DNA from: Candidatus Polarisedimenticolia bacterium
Lineage (GTDB): Bacteria; Acidobacteriota; Polarisedimenticolia; Gp22-AA2; AA152
Reading direction: 5' to 3'
DNA: 64,000 nucleotides
Assembly (NCBI GenBank): GCA_036004685.1
Contig: DASYRE010000032.1
Span: forward strand, 62,001 to 126,000
Positions 7,577-16,541 of this stretch are shown here, one piece after another. A program made the position numbers and the translations under genes. The first letter of the stretch is position 1. Every line of letters starts with the position of its first letter. The notes under the pieces were generated by a model, which worked only from the letters and a program-made list of their open reading frames with translations, was not told the origin of the DNA and searched no databases.

Positions 7577-8380
7577 ATGCGCACTCCCGCGGTTTCAGGC
7601 CGCTTCTATCCCGAAAATCCGGGTGAATTGCAGGACATGGTGGAGCGGTTCCTGGCTCCGCCCGCGCCGGAGGTCCGTCCGGCGGTCGCCTTGATGGCGC
7701 CTCATGCCGGCTTCATCTACTCGGGGATGGTCGCCGGCGACACGTATCGCCGTGTCGAGGTTCCGGCCCGGGTGGTCCTGATGGGTCCGAATCACACCGG
7801 TCTCGGCCCGCCGCTCTCCCTGTGGGATGCCGAGGATTGGGCGATGCCCTGGGGGGGCGTGGCGGTGGATCCCGATCTGTGCGCTTCCTTGAAGCGGCAT
7901 TGCGCGCGTCTCGTCTCCGATCGCCAGGCGCATCGGCGCGAGCATTGCCTGGAGGTTCAGCTCCCCTTCCTCTGGGCCCGCCGGCCGGGAGTCCGGATTG
8001 CGGCCATCGTCGTGGGGACGTCCGCCCTGGAGGATTTGCGCGAGCTGGGCCGCGGATTGGCCGCCGCCGTCTCCGGGTCGCCGGATCCGATCCTGATCGT
8101 CATCAGCAGCGACATGACCCACTACGAGACGGCGGACGCCGCCGCTCGCAAGGATCGAAGGGCCCTGGAGGCGATGGAGCGCCTCGATGCCGAGAACCTG
8201 CACCGCCGAGTGCGGGAGGAGCGTATCAGCATGTGCGGTTTCGCGCCGGCGGTCGCGGGCCTGGTGGCCGCCCGGGATCTCGGCGCGCGCTCGGGGAAGG
8301 TCGCCCGTTACTCTCATTCGGGGGACGTGACCGGAGATCTTCATTCGGTCGTCGGGTATGCCGGCATGGTCTTTTCGTGA
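7577..8380 (+). CDS. Memo-like protein (AmmeMemoRadiSam system protein B family)
   Basis: 267 residues of the MEMO1 family, related to nonheme-iron LigB-type dioxygenases. Seen: the N-terminus RTPAVSGRFYP, APHAGFIYSG with His43, GPNHTG with His73, HCLEVQLPF, VISSDMTHYE, and CGFAPAVAG near the C-terminus. The ATG at 7577 gives the normal family start; an in-frame ATG at 7547 is the alternative. In many bacteria and archaea Memo is encoded with AMMECR1 and radical SAM partners, but neither follows here. Instead the stop codon overlaps the lptD GTG (GTGA), so memo and lptD are probably translated from one mRNA. Biochemical role unknown. Confidence 0.9.
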   Translation: MRTPAVSGRFYPENPGELQDMVERFLAPPAPEVRPAVALMAPHAGFIYSGMVAGDTYRRVEVPARVVLMGPNHTGLGPPLSLWDAEDWAMPWGGVAVDPDLCASLKRHCARLVSDRQAHRREHCLEVQLPFLWARRPGVRIAAIVVGTSALEDLRELGRGLAAAVSGSPDPILIVISSDMTHYETADAAARKDRRALEAMERLDAENLHRRVREERISMCGFAPAVAGLVAARDLGARSGKVARYSHSGDVTGDLHSVVGYAGMVFS

Positions 8381-10923
8381 TTTCGAGCCGCGCATTCCGA
8401 TCCCGGTCCCGGGCGATCCGGGCGTGGCTCCGATGCTCGCTCCTCCTGGGAATCCTGCTGGCCGGGACCGCGGCCGCTTCGGCCGAGGACGCGGCGGCGG
8501 GCGCCGGAAGCGGGGAGCGGAAAGCCTTCAGCCTTCCCGGAGGCGAAGGGAGCAAGACGCTGGAGCTGACGGCCGGGGCGGGATCGGTCTTCGGCAAGGA
8601 CGAGCTGCTCCTCAAGGACTACGTCGACATCCGCTACGGAGAGCTGCGGCTCCAGGCCGATTCCGTCCGCTATGTCCCTGCCACCAAGGATTGCTTCGCC
8701 GAAGGTAACGTGATCCTCGACAACGGGCCGACCCGCATCACGGCGCGGCGGGTGGAGTACAACCTGGAGTCGGAAAAGGGGACGTTCTACGACGCCCGGG
8801 GCTACGCCGAGCCGTCGTTCTATTTCGAGGCGGTCCAGGTCCAGAAGACCGAATCTGATCGCTACGTGATCGTGGACGCGACGTTCACGACCTGCACGCA
8901 GCCGATCCCTTATTGGTCTTTCAAGGTCGCCCGCGGGACCATCCACCTCGACAACTACGCGTATCTGCACCACGTGTCATTCCGCGTGGAAAAGGTGCCC
9001 GCCTTCTACTCCCCGTATCTCGTCTGGCCCATCAAGGAGGACCGGGCGACCGGTCTGCTGTTCCCTGAGTTCGGCTTCTCCCGGAGCCGCGGATTCGTCC
9101 TGTCGAACGCCCTCTACTGGGTCATCCGCCGCAACATGGACGCGACATTCTTCGTCGACTATTACGCCCTGGCGGGCTTCGGAGAGGGGCTCGAGTATCG
9201 TTACGTCCCGTCGGCGCAGGGCAAAGGAGAGTTCCTCGGCGCTTTCATCCGGGATCAGGTGACGGACCGGGACCGCTACTTCTACAACCTCAACCATCGC
9301 CAGGATCTTCCGGGCGATTTTCGGCTGGTGGCGAGCCTCAATCAGGTGAGCGACTTCAACTATTTCCTCGACTTCCAAAGAGACCTCCGGCTCTCCACGA
9401 ACCCGGTCGTTCTCTCCGACGTTTACCTGACTCGAAACTGGTCTTCGTACAGCTTCAACTTTCGGGCGGAGCGCCGACGGCAGATCTTCAGCGTGACCCG
9501 GCAGTTCTTTCCCGTGGGCACCGGCGTAGCGACCTCGGCCACCGAAGAGGAGGAGCTCACCAATCTGATCGTCCCGCGGATCGAGTTTCGTGGAAACAAG
9601 CAGCGGCTGGGTCTTTCTCCCCTCTACTTCTCGTTTCAAACCTCGCTGGACAGCTTCGAGAAGGAGACCACCCTCTTTTCGACCACTTACCAGCGGTTCG
9701 ACCTTTTCCCGACCTTCTCCGCGCCGCTGCGGCTGGTTCCCTGGCTCGACGTCAACCCCTCGGCCTCGATCCGCGCGACCTACTACACGAAGCGCCTGGG
9801 AGGAACCTTTTCCGAGGATTTCAACGCCAACGGAGTGCCCGATCCCGGGGAGGACATCGGCCTGGACGGCGCCGCGGGGACAGGGGACTTCGGCGAGGGA
9901 AACGGAGTCCTCGACCGTCAGGTGGAGGTCCTGGACGACGATTTCGTGCGGAAGGTGCTGACGGGCTCCCTCGAGATCATCGGACCGAAGTTCTCCCGGA
10001 TCTTCGAGAGGCCGAAGAGCGATTTCTCCGCACTCTACAAGAACACGATCGAGCCGCGAGTCACCTATCTCTATCAATCGAAGGTGGAGGATCCCGCGCA
10101 GGTCATCCAGTTCGACGAGAAGGACGCCGTCGCGGGAAGCCAGAACGCCGTCCAGTACGCTCTCGTGACGCGCCTTTTCGCCAAGCGTCCGGGCGTCAGC
10201 CCGCGCGTCGCGCAGGTCGCCGACGGATTGACGTTCCCGCAGAGGCACACGCCCCCTCCCGAGGAGGGCCAGAACCTCACGGCGCCCGCCGAGGCCAAGA
10301 CGCCCGAGCCGGCCTCGCTCAGTCCGGTGGAGATTGCGTCCTTCCAGGTCTCCCAGATCTATTCCCTGCTCGGTCCGCTGAGCCGGCGCATGGACTGCAC
10401 CGACGTCCTGGGCGTCCCCGTCTGCTCGCAAACGCGCACCAGTCATCTTTCCGGAGTCGACGCCCAGCTTCGCATCAATCCCACTCTCAATGCGAGCCTG
10501 GATCTCAAAGCGCAATACGACATCCTTTACAACGCCTTCCGGCGCGCCAGCCTCAGCGCGAATTTTCGCAGCGCCCGCCGCGGCTTCGTGGATGTGACCT
10601 GGTTTTACAACGCCGGGCTGGATCCCTTCAGCAGCGACAGCAGCCAGATCGGCCTTCTGGGCGAGACGAATCTCATGAACCGGAAGCTTATTCTGGGCTT
10701 CCAAGGCAACTACGACATCATCGGCAAGAGCCTCCAGGACCAGCGCTACAAGATCGGCTACAACACCCAGTGCTGCGGCTTCACGATCGAGCTGCTGGAT
10801 CGGAGTTATCTGGGGGTGAGCCAGCAGGAGTTCCGTCTGGTGGTGAACCTGAAAGGAATCGGGAACGTGCTGGACGTGAACAGCGGCACGGCGGCCATCC
10901 CGACGGTTCCGCTCAACTTCTAG
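8377..10923 (+). CDS. lptD: LPS-assembly outer membrane protein LptD
   Basis: 848-residue beta-barrel that inserts LPS into the outer leaflet. A signal peptide (basic start, then LLLGILLAGTAAASA) is followed by an OstA/LptA-like jellyroll (about residues 55-200, including EGNVILDNGPTRITARRVEY) and the LptD barrel. Cysteines resembling the E. coli disulfide set are present: TTC near residue 180 and the adjacent pair QCCGF near residue 800, with two more in DCTDVLGVPVC. The start is GTG at 8377, overlapping the memo stop. One loop carries a complete EF-hand-type loop, residues 481-492 (DFNANGVPDPGE), followed by a second Gly/Asp-rich stretch. I do not expect this in LptD. Neither lptE nor lptA is adjacent. 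Confidence 0.95.
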   Translation: MISSRAFRSRSRAIRAWLRCSLLLGILLAGTAAASAEDAAAGAGSGERKAFSLPGGEGSKTLELTAGAGSVFGKDELLLKDYVDIRYGELRLQADSVRYVPATKDCFAEGNVILDNGPTRITARRVEYNLESEKGTFYDARGYAEPSFYFEAVQVQKTESDRYVIVDATFTTCTQPIPYWSFKVARGTIHLDNYAYLHHVSFRVEKVPAFYSPYLVWPIKEDRATGLLFPEFGFSRSRGFVLSNALYWVIRRNMDATFFVDYYALAGFGEGLEYRYVPSAQGKGEFLGAFIRDQVTDRDRYFYNLNHRQDLPGDFRLVASLNQVSDFNYFLDFQRDLRLSTNPVVLSDVYLTRNWSSYSFNFRAERRRQIFSVTRQFFPVGTGVATSATEEEELTNLIVPRIEFRGNKQRLGLSPLYFSFQTSLDSFEKETTLFSTTYQRFDLFPTFSAPLRLVPWLDVNPSASIRATYYTKRLGGTFSEDFNANGVPDPGEDIGLDGAAGTGDFGEGNGVLDRQVEVLDDDFVRKVLTGSLEIIGPKFSRIFERPKSDFSALYKNTIEPRVTYLYQSKVEDPAQVIQFDEKDAVAGSQNAVQYALVTRLFAKRPGVSPRVAQVADGLTFPQRHTPPPEEGQNLTAPAEAKTPEPASLSPVEIASFQVSQIYSLLGPLSRRMDCTDVLGVPVCSQTRTSHLSGVDAQLRINPTLNASLDLKAQYDILYNAFRRASLSANFRSARRGFVDVTWFYNAGLDPFSSDSSQIGLLGETNLMNRKLILGFQGNYDIIGKSLQDQRYKIGYNTQCCGFTIELLDRSYLGVSQQEFRLVVNLKGIGNVLDVNSGTAAIPTVPLNF

Positions 10924-10965: not shown

Positions 10966-11826
10966 TTGTTGATCCTCATCACGGGGGCCGGAGGGCGGGT
11001 CGGCCGGATCCTGGAGCGCCGCCTTCAGGCGAAATTCCCGGATCGAGTAGTGGCCGCCACGCGGGAAGAGATGGACCTCACCGACCCGGCCCGGGTCGTC
11101 CTCGAGCTGGAGCGCTTCGACCCTCCCCCGACGGTCGTCGTCAATTGCGCCGCGGTGACCGATCCGTATCTCGCCGACTCCTCGCCCGAGGAGGTCCTTG
11201 CGGTCAACCGGGAGGGCGTGGCCGGGCTGGCCCGGGCCTGCCGGGAAATTCCGTGCCGTCTGATTCACTTCTCCACGGTCGACGTGTTCGACGGCCGCAA
11301 GCTCGCCCCTTACGTCGAAACGGACGTTCCCGATGCCGCCAGCCAATACGGCCGCATCCGCACCCTCGGCGAGCTGGGCGTCGCGGAGGGGAACCCCGAT
11401 CACCTGATCGTGCGGCTCTCGCTCGTCTGTGGAGACGCCGAGGACGGAGATCCTCTGCGAGCGGTCGCGGTGGCGCTGCGCGAGGACGTTCCTCTCGCCT
11501 GGGAGGACCGACGAGTCTCCCCCATCTTCGCCGAGGATTTGGCCTCGGCGGCGGCGACCCTGATCAAGAGCGACTGGCGAGGCGTCCTGCATCTCGCCAA
11601 CGGCGGTTCCTGCTTTCTCTCGGAAATGGCCGCCGAGACGGCGCGGCATTTGAACGTCCTTGCCCCTCCGGAGCTGTGCGGCGGACCGGGCCCAGCCTCC
11701 TTTCGGGAGGGTGGGGGGGCCAACGCCGTCCTCGACGCGGGGCGCTTCGCCGTCTTGAGCGGGAGAAGATTGCGGGACTGGCGCGCGGCGCTCGCGGCCT
11801 CTCTGGACCGTCCGGCGGAGGATTGA
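10966..11826 (+). CDS. RmlD-like SDR (dTDP-4-dehydrorhamnose reductase fold)
   Basis: 286-residue extended short-chain dehydrogenase. The Rossmann motif TGAGGRVG is at the N-terminus, MDLTDPARV and VVNCAAVTDPYLAD match RmlD, and HFSTVDVFDG carries the conserved Ser/Thr stretch. The catalytic YxxxK reads Tyr128-G-R-I-Arg132, so the usual lysine is arginine. The enzyme may therefore have lower or altered activity, or act on a different sugar or lipid. The start is TTG at 10966, five bases after the strong site GGGGAGGAAA; the next codon is also TTG. It lies 42 bases after lptD and directly abuts the next SDR gene. Proposed role: NAD(P)-dependent step in envelope sugar or lipid chemistry; substrate unknown. 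Confidence 0.8.
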   Translation: MLILITGAGGRVGRILERRLQAKFPDRVVAATREEMDLTDPARVVLELERFDPPPTVVVNCAAVTDPYLADSSPEEVLAVNREGVAGLARACREIPCRLIHFSTVDVFDGRKLAPYVETDVPDAASQYGRIRTLGELGVAEGNPDHLIVRLSLVCGDAEDGDPLRAVAVALREDVPLAWEDRRVSPIFAEDLASAAATLIKSDWRGVLHLANGGSCFLSEMAAETARHLNVLAPPELCGGPGPASFREGGGANAVLDAGRFAVLSGRRLRDWRAALAASLDRPAED

Positions 11827-12816
11827 GTGGGAGCGATCTGCGTTACGGGGGGAACCGGTTATTTCGGAGGCAGCCTCGTGAGCGCTCTGGCCGACGCGGG
11901 GGAGGAAGTCGTGGCCATGGTGCGGGATCCCGGCGCGGCGGCGCATCTCGATCGGCGCGCGCGTCGGGTGAGGGGCGATGTCACCGACCCCGAATCGATC
12001 CGCCGCGCGATGCAGGGCTGCACGCAGGCGATCCATGCTGCGGCCCACGTCCGCGTGTGGGATCGGGATCCGGGTCGGTTCGAGAGGATCAACGTCGGCG
12101 GGCTCATGAACGTGCTGCGCGCCGCCGAGGAGGCGGCGCTGAGCCGGATCGTGTTCACCAGCTCGTTCATGGCGCTCGGTCCCTCCGGAGGAGGGACCGC
12201 CGACGAAGACTGGGACCCGCCCGGCCGCCGTTATCACAATCTCTACGAGAAGACCAAGGCCCTCGCCGATCAGGCGGCCCGGCGCGAGGCGCGGCGCGGG
12301 CTTCCTCTCGTCATCCTCTACCCGGGAGTCCTCTACGGCCCGGGACGCGTCACGCCGGGCAACCTGGTCGGGAAGACCATCACCGATTTCATGGCGCGCC
12401 GGATTCCAGGGATTCTCGGGGCGGGGGATCGCCGCATCTGCTACGCCTACGTGGCCGACGTCGTCGAGGGACACCTCGCGGCCCTGCGCGCCGACGTGGC
12501 CGGCGAGCGCTTCATCCTCGGAGGGGAGAACCGGACACTCCGGGAGCTTTTCGAAGAGCTGGAGAGGATCACCGGCGTTCCCGCTCCGCGGCGGCACATC
12601 CCTCATTCCGCGGCGAAGATCGCCGGGCGCTTTCTGCGATGGAGGGCGTCTCTCACGGGGATCGAGCCCGAAATCACCGACGAGGTCGTAGAGATCTACA
12701 GGCAGGAATGGGCCTACACGAGCCGCCGGGCCGCGGCGAGACTCGGCTACCGAATTACCCCCCTCAAGGTCGGGCTGGAGGCGACGGTGCGATCGATCCG
12801 GGAGGGAGCGGCTTGA
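11827..12816 (+). CDS. NAD-dependent epimerase/dehydratase (HpnA / 3beta-HSD-like SDR)
   Basis: 329-residue extended SDR with TGGTGYFGG at residues 7-15, TSSFMALGP, the intact catalytic pair Tyr140/Lys144 (YEKTK), and LYPGVLYGPGRVTPGN. This set is common in hopanoid-associated epimerases (HpnA), dihydroflavonol reductases and 3beta-hydroxysteroid dehydrogenases, which act on sugars or isoprenoid/steroid alcohols. The start is GTG at 11827, immediately after the upstream TGA. The next gene, an isoprenoid kinase, overlaps its stop, which supports a role in isoprenoid rather than nucleotide-sugar metabolism (inference). No squalene-hopene cyclase is present. Confidence 0.82.
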   Translation: MGAICVTGGTGYFGGSLVSALADAGEEVVAMVRDPGAAAHLDRRARRVRGDVTDPESIRRAMQGCTQAIHAAAHVRVWDRDPGRFERINVGGLMNVLRAAEEAALSRIVFTSSFMALGPSGGGTADEDWDPPGRRYHNLYEKTKALADQAARREARRGLPLVILYPGVLYGPGRVTPGNLVGKTITDFMARRIPGILGAGDRRICYAYVADVVEGHLAALRADVAGERFILGGENRTLRELFEELERITGVPAPRRHIPHSAAKIAGRFLRWRASLTGIEPEITDEVVEIYRQEWAYTSRRAAARLGYRITPLKVGLEATVRSIREGAA

Positions 12817-14177
12817 GCCCGGGGGCGCACTCGGAAACCCTTCGGAAGCTCGTCCACGTCTCCATGGCGGGATTCGCTCTTCTCCTCCGATGGATTCCCT
12901 GGCAGGCGGCGGCGGGGCTCGCCGCGGCGGCTATCGTCTTCAACATCGCCTTGATCCCCCGCCTCGGAGACCGACTGATCCGGCCGGGAGAGCGAGAACG
13001 GGTGCTGCGATCGGGAGTGGTGCTCTACGCCGTCGCCGTGCTCGTGCTGATTCTGATCTTCCGGCATCGGCTGGAGATCGCGGCAGGGGCTTGGGGAATT
13101 CTGGCCTTCGGAGACGGAGCGTCCACCCTGCTGGGCGGCACCTTGGCGGGGCCGAGGCTTCCGTGGAACCCGAAGAAGAGCTGGATCGGATCGGCGGCCT
13201 TCCTGCTCTTCGGGTCGGTGGGAGGGGCGGCGCTGATGTCCTGGGTCGGCGCGCGCTACGACGCGCCGGCTCAGGGGCTTCCGATCTGGGTCCTGGCGAG
13301 CGTCGCGGCCCTGGCGGGGGCGATCGTGGAGAGTCTTCCCCTGGCGCTCGACGACAATCTCTCGGTGCCGCTGTTCTGCGGAGCCTTGCTGCGCTCGCTC
13401 CAGCTACTGGATCCGCGGGTCTGGACCGATTCCGCGGCGTTGCTCCGCCACGACTTCTTCCTGGGTCTGGCCCTCACCGGCCTCTTCGCTCTGGCGGCGC
13501 GGGGCACGGGCTCGGTCTCCTGGTCCGGAGTGGCGGGTGGAATGCTGGTGGGAACGGTCATCGCGACGTTCGCGGGCCCTTCCGGCTTCGCCGTCCTGGC
13601 GCTTTTCTTCATCCTGGGATCGGTGGCGACGCGGCTCGGATACGCGCGGAAGGCCCGCCGGGGCATCGCCCAGGAGGACCGCGGCGCCCGCGGCTGGGTG
13701 CACGCGCTGGCGAACGGCTCCGTTCCCGCCTATCTCGCCTTTCTCGGCGCGTCAACCTCGCCGGAGCTGGCGGCGATGCTTCGAGTCGCCTTCGTGGCTT
13801 CGGTGGCCACCGCCGCCTGCGACACGCTCGGCTCGGAAGCTGGACCCCTCGGCAAGGGGGAGCCGCTGCTCATCACCCGGATGAGAAGAGTTCCCGCCGG
13901 CACTCCGGGGGCCGTCTCGCTGCTGGGGACGGGGGCAGGCGCGGCCGGCGCGCTGCTGATCGGGATGCTCGCCGCCGCCCTGGGGACGATCCCGGCCTGG
14001 ACGATCGGAGTCGTCGTCGCGGCCGCGCTCTTGGGCGCCCTGCTGGAGTCGGTGCTGGGAGCGACGCTCGAGCCGATGGGCCTGGTCGACAGCGAAACGA
14101 TCAATTTCGTGAACACGGCGGCCGGCGGTCTCGCGGCCCTGGCCTTGATGCGGTGGGCGGGAGGGGGTACCCCGTGA
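12813..14177 (+). CDS. fused phytol/polyprenol kinase (VTE5-like) and DUF92 (VTE6-like) membrane protein
   Basis: 454 residues, many hydrophobic helices. The N-terminal half (to about residue 215) has the dolichol/phytol-kinase motifs RKLVHVSM (11-18), FGDGASTLLGG (99-109) and NPKKSWIGS (119-127). The C-terminal half (from about 235) has DUF92 motifs: GGMLVGTVIA, ATRLGYARKARRG, HALANG (298-302), ACDTLGSEAG (335-344) and RVPAGTPGAVSLLGT (359-373). In plants VTE5 phosphorylates phytol and VTE6 (DUF92) phosphorylates phytyl-phosphate. One fused protein could thus turn an isoprenoid alcohol into its diphosphate (inference). The start is TTG at 12813, overlapping the previous stop (TTGA) after GGGAGGG. 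Its stop overlaps the UbiA gene start (GTGA). Confidence 0.85.
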   Translation: MSPGAHSETLRKLVHVSMAGFALLLRWIPWQAAAGLAAAAIVFNIALIPRLGDRLIRPGERERVLRSGVVLYAVAVLVLILIFRHRLEIAAGAWGILAFGDGASTLLGGTLAGPRLPWNPKKSWIGSAAFLLFGSVGGAALMSWVGARYDAPAQGLPIWVLASVAALAGAIVESLPLALDDNLSVPLFCGALLRSLQLLDPRVWTDSAALLRHDFFLGLALTGLFALAARGTGSVSWSGVAGGMLVGTVIATFAGPSGFAVLALFFILGSVATRLGYARKARRGIAQEDRGARGWVHALANGSVPAYLAFLGASTSPELAAMLRVAFVASVATAACDTLGSEAGPLGKGEPLLITRMRRVPAGTPGAVSLLGTGAGAAGALLIGMLAAALGTIPAWTIGVVVAAALLGALLESVLGATLEPMGLVDSETINFVNTAAGGLAALALMRWAGGGTP

Positions 14178-15223
14178 GGCCGTCCGACCTCCTCGGGGGT
14201 CTTCCGCATCATTCCCTGGCGAAGCTCGCCCGCTCGCTGTCGAAATGGCGCGTCTTCCTGGCATTCGCCCGGCCTTTCACCCTGCTGCCGCCTCTCCTGG
14301 GAGTCGTGTCGGGAGCGATCACGGCCTTCGGATCGGCGCACAACCCCGACCCTCAGCGCCGGCTGACCGCCAGCGTGATCGCGACCATCGCGCTCGGCTC
14401 GCTTTGTGCGGCGATGCTCAACGCCGCCTCCAACGGAATCAACCAGATCTACGATCTCGAGATCGATCGCCGGAACAAGCCGGGAAGACCGCTGGTGACG
14501 GGCGCCCTGTCTCTCGCGGAGGGATGGTGGTTCTCGGCGGTTCTGTACGTGCTGGCGCTCCTTCCCACCTGGCTGGTGGTCGTCTATCCCTACAACTCGG
14601 CGGCTGAGAAGCTCGCGGCCCCCCTGGCGCGTCACGAGTGTTTCTTCATCTATCTCGCGGGGATGGTCCTCACCGTCGTGTATTCCGTCCCGGCGTTCGG
14701 CCGGACGAAGCGCAGTGGATTCTGGGCGAATCTCACGATCGCCGTCCCGCGCGGCGGGCTTCTCAAGGTGGCCGGCTGGTCGATGGTCGCGAGCGTCATG
14801 CATCCCGAGCCCTGGTTCATCGGCCTGATCTTCTTTCTGTTCCTGCTCGGCGCCAGCTCGACCAAGGACTTTTCCGACATGGAAGGGGACCGCGCTCATG
14901 GGTGCTCGACGCTGCCGATTCGCTATGGAGTGCGGACGGCGGCCCGGATGATCGCGCCCTTCTTCGTTTTTCCATGGCTGCTGATGCCGCTGGGCGCTCA
15001 CGTGGCGGATCCGTGGAACCCTACCCGTCGCCTCCTATCGGGCAACGCCGCGATCTTGACGGGGGTCGGAGCGGCGCTGACCCTCTGGGGGCTCTGGACC
15101 TCGTACCTGATCACCAAGGATCCCGAGGATCTGGCGACGACCGAGAACCACCCGTCATGGACCCACATGTACATGATGATGATGTTCGCGCAAGTCGGAT
15201 TCGCAGTTGCCTACCTCGTGTGA
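14174..15223 (+). CDS. UbiA-family prenyltransferase (chlorophyll-synthase-like motifs)
   Basis: 349 residues, polytopic membrane enzyme that transfers a prenyl group from a prenyl diphosphate. Both Mg-diphosphate motifs are intact: NQIYDLEID (Asn90, Asp94, Asp98) and KDFSDMEGDRAHG (Asp232, Asp235, Asp239). The second, followed by STLPIRYG, resembles ChlG/BchG and homogentisate prenyltransferases more than UbiA or MenA. No chlorophyll or tocopherol gene is nearby, so the acceptor is unknown: a quinone, a glycerol lipid or something new. The start is GTG at 14174, sharing bases with the upstream stop. The upstream fused kinase could supply its prenyl diphosphate. Confidence 0.88.
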   Translation: MRPSDLLGGLPHHSLAKLARSLSKWRVFLAFARPFTLLPPLLGVVSGAITAFGSAHNPDPQRRLTASVIATIALGSLCAAMLNAASNGINQIYDLEIDRRNKPGRPLVTGALSLAEGWWFSAVLYVLALLPTWLVVVYPYNSAAEKLAAPLARHECFFIYLAGMVLTVVYSVPAFGRTKRSGFWANLTIAVPRGGLLKVAGWSMVASVMHPEPWFIGLIFFLFLLGASSTKDFSDMEGDRAHGCSTLPIRYGVRTAARMIAPFFVFPWLLMPLGAHVADPWNPTRRLLSGNAAILTGVGAALTLWGLWTSYLITKDPEDLATTENHPSWTHMYMMMMFAQVGFAVAYLV

Positions 15224-16541
15224 AGCAAAATCCTTCCTTGCCCGCCGCGGCCTTTCGCCCGCGTGGCGGCGCCTCGGGGCGGCGATCGGGATCCTCGCGA
15301 TCGGGCTCGTCGCCGCGACGGCCCGGCCGGGCGAGGCGCCGCCTCCGAGCCTGGTCATCCTTTCTCTGGATGGACTGCGCCACGATGACCCCCAGCGCGT
15401 CGCCGGAGGGGCGTTCTCGAGGCTGGCTCGGGAGGGAGCCAGCGCGGTGCGGATGGAGCCGCCCTTTCCGGCCTCCACGTTTCCCGCTCACGCGACGCTC
15501 GCGACGGGATGTTATCCGGAGCGTCATGGAATCCTCAACAGCCGCTTTCGCGACGCCCGGCGCGGCGAATTCGATCGATCGAACGATCCCGAGTGGATCG
15601 CGTGCGAGCCTCTCTGGGTGACGGCGGAGAAGCAGGGGGTGAGAGCCGGGGTCCTCAATTGGGTCGGCTCGTTCGGACGCTGGCGCGGACGGGCGGCAAG
15701 CTATCACGATCCCGCTTTCACACCCCGCACCGATCGGGTGACGATCGAGGGGGTGGTCCGATGGCTCGGGCTGCCCGCGCCGCTCCGGCCGCGGTTGATT
15801 CTGGCCTATCTCGAAGGCGTGGATCACACGGCGCACCGCGACGGTCCGGATTCGGCGCGCGCCCGACAAAGGGTGGTTGTAGAAGATCGGCTCCTCGCAT
15901 CCTTCATCGCTCGCATCGGATCGCTGCCCGGCGGCGCGGGAGTGAATCTGATCGTCGTCAGCGATCATGGGATGGCGGTCAGGAATTCGGCGCTCGATCC
16001 CGGGACGGCCCTTGCCCGGGCGGGGATTCCCGGACGCACGTGGAGCTCCGGCGGATCCGCGAACGTCTACCTTCGCAGAAAGGAGGATCTCCCCCGCGCG
16101 GCGCGAGTCCTGGCGGGACTGCCCGGGTTGGAAGTGTATCGGAGCGGCGCGATTCCCGGAGATCTGCACTACGATTTCCCCGGCCGGACCGGAGATCTCG
16201 TCCTGATCGCGCCGGTCGGGGCGGAGCTGGGGAGTGATTCCTTTCCCGAGAAGCTCGGCGGGATCCACGGATATCGCGGCACGGAGCCGTCGATGGGAGC
16301 CGTGTTCTTCGGTTGGGGTCCGGCGTTCGGGCCGGGGAATCGCGTGGAGGGGATTCGCGCCGTCGACGTCTATTCCCTGGCGTGCCGGATCCTGGGGATC
16401 GCCCCTTCGGGCTCCGAACAAGGCGGAGTGCCGCCGGGAATCCTCAGGACGCCCGGGAAGCCTCGGGCTCGCGGGGATCAGACGGGGACTTGCGGGCGAT
16501 GCGGACGTGAGCCGGCCGGAGGGTCTGGCCGCGCAGGGTGA
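15207..16541 (+). CDS. alkaline-phosphatase-superfamily phosphodiesterase / nucleotide pyrophosphatase
   Basis: 444 residues. An N-terminal membrane or signal segment (AAIGILAIGLVAATA, about residues 25-39) sends the enzyme to the periplasm. The two-metal site of the type I phosphodiesterase/nucleotide pyrophosphatase family is visible: LSLDGLRHD (Asp55), PASTFPAH with the nucleophile Thr91, LEGVDHTAHRDGPDS, VVSDHGM and the closing GIHGYRGTEPSMGAVFFGWG. Relatives cleave phosphodiester or pyrophosphate bonds in nucleotides or lipids. The start is probably TTG at 15207, inside the UbiA gene end (17-base overlap). The last 98 bases run into the convergent grpE gene, so the final 30 or so residues are unusual in composition. 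In this operon it could act on a prenyl- or glycosyl-phosphate product (inference). Confidence 0.84.
   Translation: MPTSCEAKSFLARRGLSPAWRRLGAAIGILAIGLVAATARPGEAPPPSLVILSLDGLRHDDPQRVAGGAFSRLAREGASAVRMEPPFPASTFPAHATLATGCYPERHGILNSRFRDARRGEFDRSNDPEWIACEPLWVTAEKQGVRAGVLNWVGSFGRWRGRAASYHDPAFTPRTDRVTIEGVVRWLGLPAPLRPRLILAYLEGVDHTAHRDGPDSARARQRVVVEDRLLASFIARIGSLPGGAGVNLIVVSDHGMAVRNSALDPGTALARAGIPGRTWSSGGSANVYLRRKEDLPRAARVLAGLPGLEVYRSGAIPGDLHYDFPGRTGDLVLIAPVGAELGSDSFPEKLGGIHGYRGTEPSMGAVFFGWGPAFGPGNRVEGIRAVDVYSLACRILGIAPSGSEQGGVPPGILRTPGKPRARGDQTGTCGRCGREPAGGSGRAG

What the first reader, a model, noticed from the sequence alone, without database searches (positions are those of the whole stretch)
10966..16541. 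Isoprenoid-alcohol kinase fusion with a UbiA prenyltransferase in the lptD operon
Five genes with zero to overlapping junctions follow lptD: RmlD-like SDR, HpnA-like SDR, a VTE5-like kinase fused to a VTE6-like DUF92 kinase, a ChlG-like UbiA and a periplasmic phosphodiesterase. Plant VTE5 and VTE6 turn phytol into phytyl diphosphate in two steps; the fusion could do both. With the adjacent UbiA this could be a complete path from a free prenyl alcohol to a prenylated product, in an organism with no photosynthesis gene in view. The product is not known to me.
Basis: partly seen in the sequence, partly recalled or inferred. Interest (0 to 1): 0.68.

Follow-up and report, generated by a model that had tools for sequence, protein, structure and literature searches.

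The report
Fused prenol kinase paired with UbiA
Many non-photosynthetic Acidobacteriota carry a two-in-one membrane kinase, probably able to turn a free isoprenoid alcohol into an activated diphosphate, and a distinct UbiA prenyltransferase occurs only in genomes that have it, which points to an undescribed prenylated product.

Summary
The genes are as described. A 454-aa two-domain membrane protein (12813-14177; N-half with VTE5/prenol-kinase motifs, C-half DUF92/VTE6) overlaps a UbiA gene (14174-15223) by 4 nt, downstream of lptD and two SDRs. The genome belongs to Acidobacteriota.

Survey: in 159 near-complete Acidobacteriota genomes, 49 of 49 with this UbiA have the full fusion. The UbiA is in 49 of 57 genomes with the fusion and 0 of 102 without it, including those with only one half. 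In 14 genomes the two genes lie on different contigs. Catalytic-type residues are invariant in both halves and in UbiA.

Corrections: UbiA is its own subfamily, nearest in sequence and model to DGGGP synthase and below every ChlG/HPT cut-off. The RmlD-like gene belongs to a dTDP-sugar module. The phosphodiesterase is local, though similar enzymes recur. Fused Sec59-DUF92 proteins were already reported in Methanosarcina. Archaeal lipids, tocopherol and bacteriochlorophyll are excluded as routes.

Most likely: a bifunctional prenol/prenyl-phosphate kinase supplying C15-C20 prenyl diphosphate to a dedicated UbiA. Acceptor and product are unknown, and no activity is shown.

The parts
12813..14177 (+). 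Fused two-domain membrane kinase: residues about 1-205 VTE5/prenol-kinase-like (COG0170 type), residues 222-424 DUF92/VTE6-like
   Evidence: ORF with overlapping start; PF01940 7.6e-49; invariant R11, H15, G100, D101, K122, E173, D181 and D337, T338, E342, G363, S369, N431 in 58 sequences; AlphaFold pLDDT 93, pTM 0.91; C-half matches CarS/CdsA fold, Z 8.8/7.6
14174..15223 (+). UbiA-superfamily prenyltransferase, distinct subfamily, DGGGP-synthase-like, with NQxxDxxxD and KDFSDMEGD motifs
   Evidence: PF01040 9.9e-33; invariant motif residues; best PDB profile hit DGGGPS 2.4e-21; model Z 27.1 to 6m31
11827..12816 (+). HpnA-like SDR, the gene most often directly 5' of the kinase; beside the UbiA in the Planctomycetota locus
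   Evidence: TIGR03466 3.1e-67 but below its cut-off; HpnA-like SDR within 300 nt 5' of the kinase in 53 of 101 testable loci; next to UbiA in L148
10966..11826 (+). RmlD-like SDR; probably part of an lptD-side dTDP-sugar module, not of the prenyl route
   Evidence: PF04321 3.5e-45; in relatives neighbours RmlA and RmlB genes that pass their cut-offs
15207..16541 (+). Secreted or membrane-anchored type I phosphodiesterase (alkaline-phosphatase superfamily); present here and in close relatives, with larger PF01663 proteins in other layouts beside the kinase/UbiA in other lineages
   Evidence: PF01663 2.1e-54; PDE orthologues in family and order; PF01663 proteins in L066, L104, L148
8413..10923 (+). 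lptD, head of the conserved neighbourhood
   Evidence: LptD homologue within 8 kb upstream, same strand, in 54 of 67 testable kinase loci

Best explanation
The fused protein is a bifunctional isoprenoid-alcohol activator. The N-half (VTE5/FOLK/PolK type, CTP-dependent by homology) phosphorylates a short prenol (C15-C20, for example geranylgeraniol or phytol). The C-half (VTE6/DUF92) adds the second phosphate, giving a prenyl diphosphate. The neighbouring DGGGPS-like UbiA transfers that chain to an acceptor, probably a hydroxyl or other small polar head group, giving a prenylated lipid that is neither an archaeal diether, a tocochromanol nor a chlorophyll. Shown: gene order, family membership, invariant catalytic-type residues, co-conservation. 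Inferred: kinase chemistry, chain length, direction of flow, acceptor and product.
For: Strict co-occurrence: 49/49 genomes with the UbiA have the full fusion, 0/102 genomes without the fusion have the UbiA, Fisher p 5e-33 not corrected for shared ancestry; 14 pairs are on different contigs. Co-absence inside families that otherwise have both (G013 and G029 in f4, G021 in f6). Four-base overlaps in the window. In Planctomycetota L148 the order is phosphodiesterase, short-chain prenyl diphosphate synthase, VTE5-like ORF, VTE6-like ORF, UbiA, HpnA-like SDR; in L160 an FPP-synthase-type gene lies 87 nt before the UbiA although the kinase is elsewhere. N-half RKxxH matches the CTP/phosphate clamp modelled for the assayed prenol kinase PfPolK (PMC10849223). 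C-half model matches CTP-using CarS and CdsA. VTE6 is reported as a phytyl-phosphate kinase (PMC9782597).
Against: Eight near-complete genomes have the full fusion but no such UbiA, and so do Gemmatimonadota genomes and several Thermoanaerobaculia, so the kinase can serve something else. The genome has three trans-prenyl synthases of its own, so de novo prenyl diphosphate should be available without salvage. The N-half has no Pfam or PDB sequence hit and was not aligned to real VTE5. Half-to-half homology was not detected with these small alignments. CarS and CdsA are cytidylyltransferases, not kinases. No acceptor-making gene is consistently linked.
Confidence: 0.58

Rival explanations
1. Carrier-lipid recycling: the fusion rephosphorylates a long polyprenol (undecaprenol/dolichol type) for envelope glycan export, in line with the lptD and dTDP-sugar neighbours, and the UbiA acts on a polyprenyl phosphate.
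For: lptD and RmlA/RmlB/RmlD-type genes are the usual upstream neighbours; the N-half belongs to the dolichol-kinase kind; archaeal DUF92 genes sit beside uppS (PMC5898192).
Against: Two of this genome's other UbiAs resemble decaprenyl-phosphate phosphoribosyltransferase, one above its cut-off, while this UbiA is far from that family (8j8j 0.0016 against DGGGPS 2.4e-21). Short-chain prenyl synthases, not UppS, are the linked synthases. Two phosphorylations are not needed to make a carrier phosphate.
Confidence: 0.15
2. General prenol salvage (phytol or geranylgeraniol from soil) that feeds the common prenyl diphosphate pool for menaquinone and other products; the UbiA is only one of several consumers.
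For: Fusion without UbiA in 8 of 57 genomes and in Gemmatimonadota; an MqnP-like menaquinone prenyltransferase is present in this genome.
Against: It does not explain why the UbiA never occurs without the fusion (0/102) although ordinary prenyl synthases should supply the same donor.
Confidence: 0.17
3. Not kinases: one or both halves are cytidylyltransferases that make a CDP-activated lipid used with the UbiA product.
For: C-half structural matches are CarS (CDP-archaeol synthase, Z 8.8) and CdsA (Z 7.5-7.6).
Against: Shared fold shows no function; Z below 9 is modest. DUF92 members tested (plant VTE6) are phytyl-phosphate kinases (PMC9782597), and COG0170 members tested (VTE5, FOLK, PfPolK) are alcohol kinases.
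Confidence: 0.08

Closest known systems
Sec59(COG0170)-DUF92(COG1836) fusion in Methanosarcina barkeri, Mbar_A3310 (PMC5898192)
   Same: Same two-domain order; catalytic aspartates kept in both halves; predicted isoprenoid kinase
   Different: Archaeal; its only reported conserved context is uppS, not UbiA, HpnA or lptD; no activity shown there either
Plant and cyanobacterial VTE5 + VTE6 phytol salvage
   Same: Same two enzyme families, here joined in one protein; activates a prenol in two steps if the function is kept
   Different: Separate genes in plants and cyanobacteria; coupled there to tocopherol, phylloquinone and chlorophyll; here no tocopherol cyclase and no BchH-domain gene in this genome
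Archaeal DGGGP synthase (PDB 6m31/7bpu)
   Same: Nearest solved structure by profile and by model (Z 27.1); nearly the same second motif (KDFEDMEGD vs KDFSDMEGD)
   Different: First motif NQ instead of ND; about 65 residues longer, with a conserved C-terminal ENHPSWTHMY; no GGGP synthase in 60 of 60 genomes
Chlorophyll synthase ChlG/BchG
   Same: Same UbiA branch; profile E 5e-21 to 9sau/9sas
   Different: Scores 98, 86 and 69 against cut-offs 313, 212 and 436; no bacteriochlorophyll pathway
Homogentisate phytyltransferase (VTE2)
   Same: NQxxDxxxD first motif (recalled, not aligned here)
   Different: 82 bits against a cut-off of 226

Membership tests
UbiA prenyltransferase superfamily | PF01040 above cut-off and two Asp-rich motifs | tested here: met
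   113.9 bits against 34.2; N87, N90, Q91, D94, D98 and K231, D232, D235, G238, D239 invariant in 38 sequences
Chlorophyll synthase ChlG/BchG | Above the curated NCBIfam cut-offs | tested here: not met
   98.5/313, 86.2/212.3, 69.1/436.45; PF11965 absent in this genome
Homogentisate phytyltransferase | Above NF009525 cut-off; tocopherol pathway partner | tested here: not met
   82.4 against 226; PF14249 absent from every UbiA-bearing genome of 60
DGGGP synthase | Above NF009521/NF009522 cut-offs and GGGP synthase partner | tested here: not met
   70.8/296 and 57.4/353; PF01884 in 0 of 60 genomes. The fold and second motif do match
DUF92/VTE6 family (PF01940) | Pfam cut-off and conserved D-T, E, G-T-x-G-x-x-S residues | tested here: met
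   166.8 against 27.5; D337, T338, E342, G363, G366, S369, N431 invariant in 58
TIGR00297 equivalog | Above cut-off 205.85 | tested here: not met
   153.9 bits
VTE5/FOLK/PolK prenol kinase (COG0170) | Charged clamp R-K-x-x-H | tested here: met
   R11-K12-x-x-H15, R and H invariant in 58; clamp defined in PMC10849223
VTE5/FOLK/PolK prenol kinase (COG0170) | Direct alignment to assayed VTE5 or FOLK residues | not testable with these tools
   No reference VTE5 sequence could be fetched; no Pfam match for the N-half, no PDB match
VTE5/VTE6 pathway | Kinase activity on prenol and prenyl phosphate | not testable with these tools
   Needs an enzyme assay
HpnA hopanoid-associated epimerase | Above TIGR03466 cut-off | tested here: not met
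   226.8 against 367.65; hopanoid genes not tested
RmlD dTDP-4-dehydrorhamnose reductase | Above TIGR01214 cut-off | tested here: not met
   144.8 against 224.05; RmlA and RmlB neighbours in relatives pass theirs
Type I phosphodiesterase (PF01663) | Pfam cut-off and nucleophile/metal motifs | tested here: met
   185.8 against 23; ASTFPAHATLATG, VDHTAHRDGP, SDHGM, HGY in the sequence

The most novel reading that the evidence does not exclude
A dedicated prenol-to-prenylated-lipid pathway in non-phototrophic Acidobacteriota makes a prenyl compound of a class not yet described. The fused kinase regenerates the donor from a recycled or scavenged alcohol, and a DGGGPS-like UbiA with an NQ motif uses an acceptor other than glycerol-1-phosphate lipid, quinone ring or chlorin.
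Probability: 0.35. Interest if true: 0.75.

Novelty: new variant of a known kind. Interest (0 to 1): 0.52.

Why it matters
Outside plants, algae, cyanobacteria and malaria parasites almost no prenol-salvage kinase has been identified (PMC9782597, PMC10849223). A single gene that could do both steps, always present where one UbiA subfamily is present, gives a compact, testable bacterial system. It could be a one-enzyme biocatalyst for prenyl diphosphates, and it predicts a prenylated lipid across many Acidobacteriota that lipidomics could look for.

Tried and rejected
Archaeal ether-lipid route: rejected, GGGP synthase PF01884 in 0 of 60 genomes. Tocopherol: rejected, cyclase only in G048, which lacks both genes. 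Bacteriochlorophyll: BchH domain only in G048. This UbiA as the menaquinone prenyltransferase: unlikely, an MqnP-like UbiA is present. Geranylgeranyl reductase profile (TIGR02032): uninformative, the superfamily is everywhere. Half-to-half hhalign: no detection, alignments too shallow. Foldseek of the whole kinase model against PDB: no E below 0.001; only the second look gave CarS and CdsA. The N-half was not folded alone (prediction cap), so its MATE/MurJ-like rows at Z 5-6 are treated as generic. ChlG structures 9sas/9sau did not appear in the structure comparison, so ChlG was compared by sequence only. First genome-contig scan with the single sequence found nothing. Tree distances of kinase and UbiA correlate (Mantel r 0.78), but shared species history explains that too. 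Plasmid search for UbiA references gave only one ChlG. Two papers that I looked up as likely sources on VTE6 are not held.

Full report
Observation. All five ORFs are present with the junctions described. The kinase starts at a TTG that overlaps the stop of the HpnA-like SDR (TTGA), the UbiA starts at a GTG overlapping the kinase stop (GTGA), and both have purine-rich stretches upstream that could serve as ribosome-binding sites. Family scans give RmlD_sub_bind, Epimerase/HpnA-like, DUF92 (only on residues 222-424), UbiA and type I phosphodiesterase. The N-half of the fusion has no Pfam hit, so its assignment rests on motifs: R11-K12-x-x-H15, G100-D101, PWNPKKS with K122, E173, and D181-D-N (numbering from the alignment). 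R11, H15, G100, D101, K122, E173 and D181 are invariant in 58 homologues from Acidobacteriota, Gemmatimonadota and Omnitrophota. The RKxxH element is the same as the clamp (Arg29, Lys30, His33) modelled to hold CTP phosphates in the assayed malaria prenol kinase (PMC10849223). The C-half keeps D337-T338, E342, G363, G366, S369 and N431 in all 58.

Organism.

Structure. The fusion model is confident (pLDDT 93.2, pTM 0.91). In the second-look alignment the C-half gives CarS (5guf, Z 8.8, rmsd 4.1 over 120 residues) and CdsA (Z 7.6) as the top rows; this is modest but agrees with the published HHpred link between DUF92 and the cytidylyltransferase family (PMC5898192). The UbiA model (pLDDT 90, pTM 0.86) matches DGGGP synthase 6m31 at Z 27.1, above other UbiAs at 24 and below. 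The UbiA profile also finds DGGGP synthase first (2.4e-21) with chlorophyll synthase close behind (5e-21). It misses the cut-offs of every ChlG, HPT and DGGGPS model by a wide margin, so it is a separate subfamily.

Co-conservation. In 60 relatives, 42 have the UbiA and all 42 have the kinase; 11 lack both, including members of families that otherwise have both, which suggests joint loss. In an even draw of 159 Acidobacteriota genomes, each at least 90% complete, 57 have the full fusion, 17 only a stand-alone DUF92 region and one only an N-half. The UbiA is in 49 of the 57 and in none of the 102 others (Fisher p 5e-33, which ignores shared ancestry). The pair is within 400 nt in 32 of the 49, further apart on the same contig in 3, and on different contigs in 14. 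The dependence is one-way: the UbiA never occurs without the fusion, the fusion occurs without the UbiA in 8 genomes here and in Gemmatimonadota.

Neighbourhood. Around the kinase, lptD lies upstream on the same strand in 54 of 67 testable loci, an HpnA-like SDR lies within 300 nt upstream in 53 of 101, and a UbiA lies within 4 kb downstream in 59 of 90. Between lptD and the HpnA-like gene many relatives carry RmlA (468 bits against a cut-off of 320), RmlB (422 against 365) and further 4,6-dehydratase-like SDRs. The RmlD-like gene of the window is therefore best read as part of a dTDP-sugar module attached to lptD. In other lineages the pieces are rearranged: Planctomycetota L148 has phosphodiesterase, prenyl diphosphate synthase, VTE5-like ORF, VTE6-like ORF, UbiA, HpnA-like SDR (the two kinase ORFs overlap by 34 nt, so a frameshift in the draft cannot be excluded, and its UbiA groups near Acidobacteriota L136, so transfer is possible). 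Omnitrophota L104 has the kinase, a Sir2-like gene (by eye), a phosphodiesterase and the UbiA. In Acidobacteriota L160 an FPP-synthase-type gene sits 87 nt before a UbiA whose kinase is elsewhere.

Mechanism. The best reading is prenol to prenyl phosphate (N-half) to prenyl diphosphate (C-half) to prenylated acceptor (UbiA). The linked short-chain synthases favour C15-C20 chains. Possible acceptors are narrowed: no GGGP synthase in any of 60 genomes, no tocopherol cyclase and no BchH domain except in one genome that lacks both genes, and an MqnP-like UbiA is available for menaquinone. The DGGGPS resemblance suggests, but does not show, O-prenylation of a hydroxyl. Why a cell with three trans-prenyl synthases needs an alcohol kinase is open: scavenged alcohol, or recycling of alcohol released from its own lipids.

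Novelty. The two-domain fusion was already described in Methanosarcina with conserved aspartates (PMC5898192), and VTE6 was first proposed from bacterial comparisons (PMC3223725, PMC9782597). What I did not find in the papers searched is the bacterial fusion as the constant partner of a distinct UbiA subfamily in non-phototrophs. The library is partial, so this is not proof of novelty. I rate it a new variant of a known kind.

Noticed in passing
window 16444-16541: The phosphodiesterase and the convergent grpE-like gene overlap tail to tail by 98 nt; overlaps of about 44 to 119 nt recur in relatives L037-L039 and L042.
   Followed up: no
L175:6460-8337 (minus), beside UbiA at 8355-9353; also L174:4450-6504: In two Acidobacteriota loci the unlinked UbiA is within about 20 nt of a large membrane protein; the L175 copy has WDADSYYHLAVARLY, which recalls STT3/AglB oligosaccharyltransferases, and had no Pfam hit.
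   Followed up: partly
L092 and L084, downstream of the kinase: Where the UbiA is missing beside the kinase, the next genes are an S4/FtsJ (TlyA-like) methyltransferase and NAD kinase, from memory the usual companions of ispA-dxs clusters.
   Followed up: partly
G048 (Acidobacteriota relative): The one relative with a BchH-type domain also has a weak tocopherol-cyclase match (6e-7) and lacks both the fusion and the UbiA.
   Followed up: no
family f18 genomes (G046, G083, G093, G103, G138 and others): A stand-alone DUF92 gene without VTE5-like half and without this UbiA is the rule in one Acidobacteriota family.
   Followed up: no
window 7600-8380: A MEMO/AmmeMemoRadiSam-type gene (frame read as MRTPAVSGRFYPENPGELQDMVERFLAPPAP, named by eye) lies directly upstream of lptD; a conserved gene (cluster c13) also sits before lptD in relatives.
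   Followed up: no
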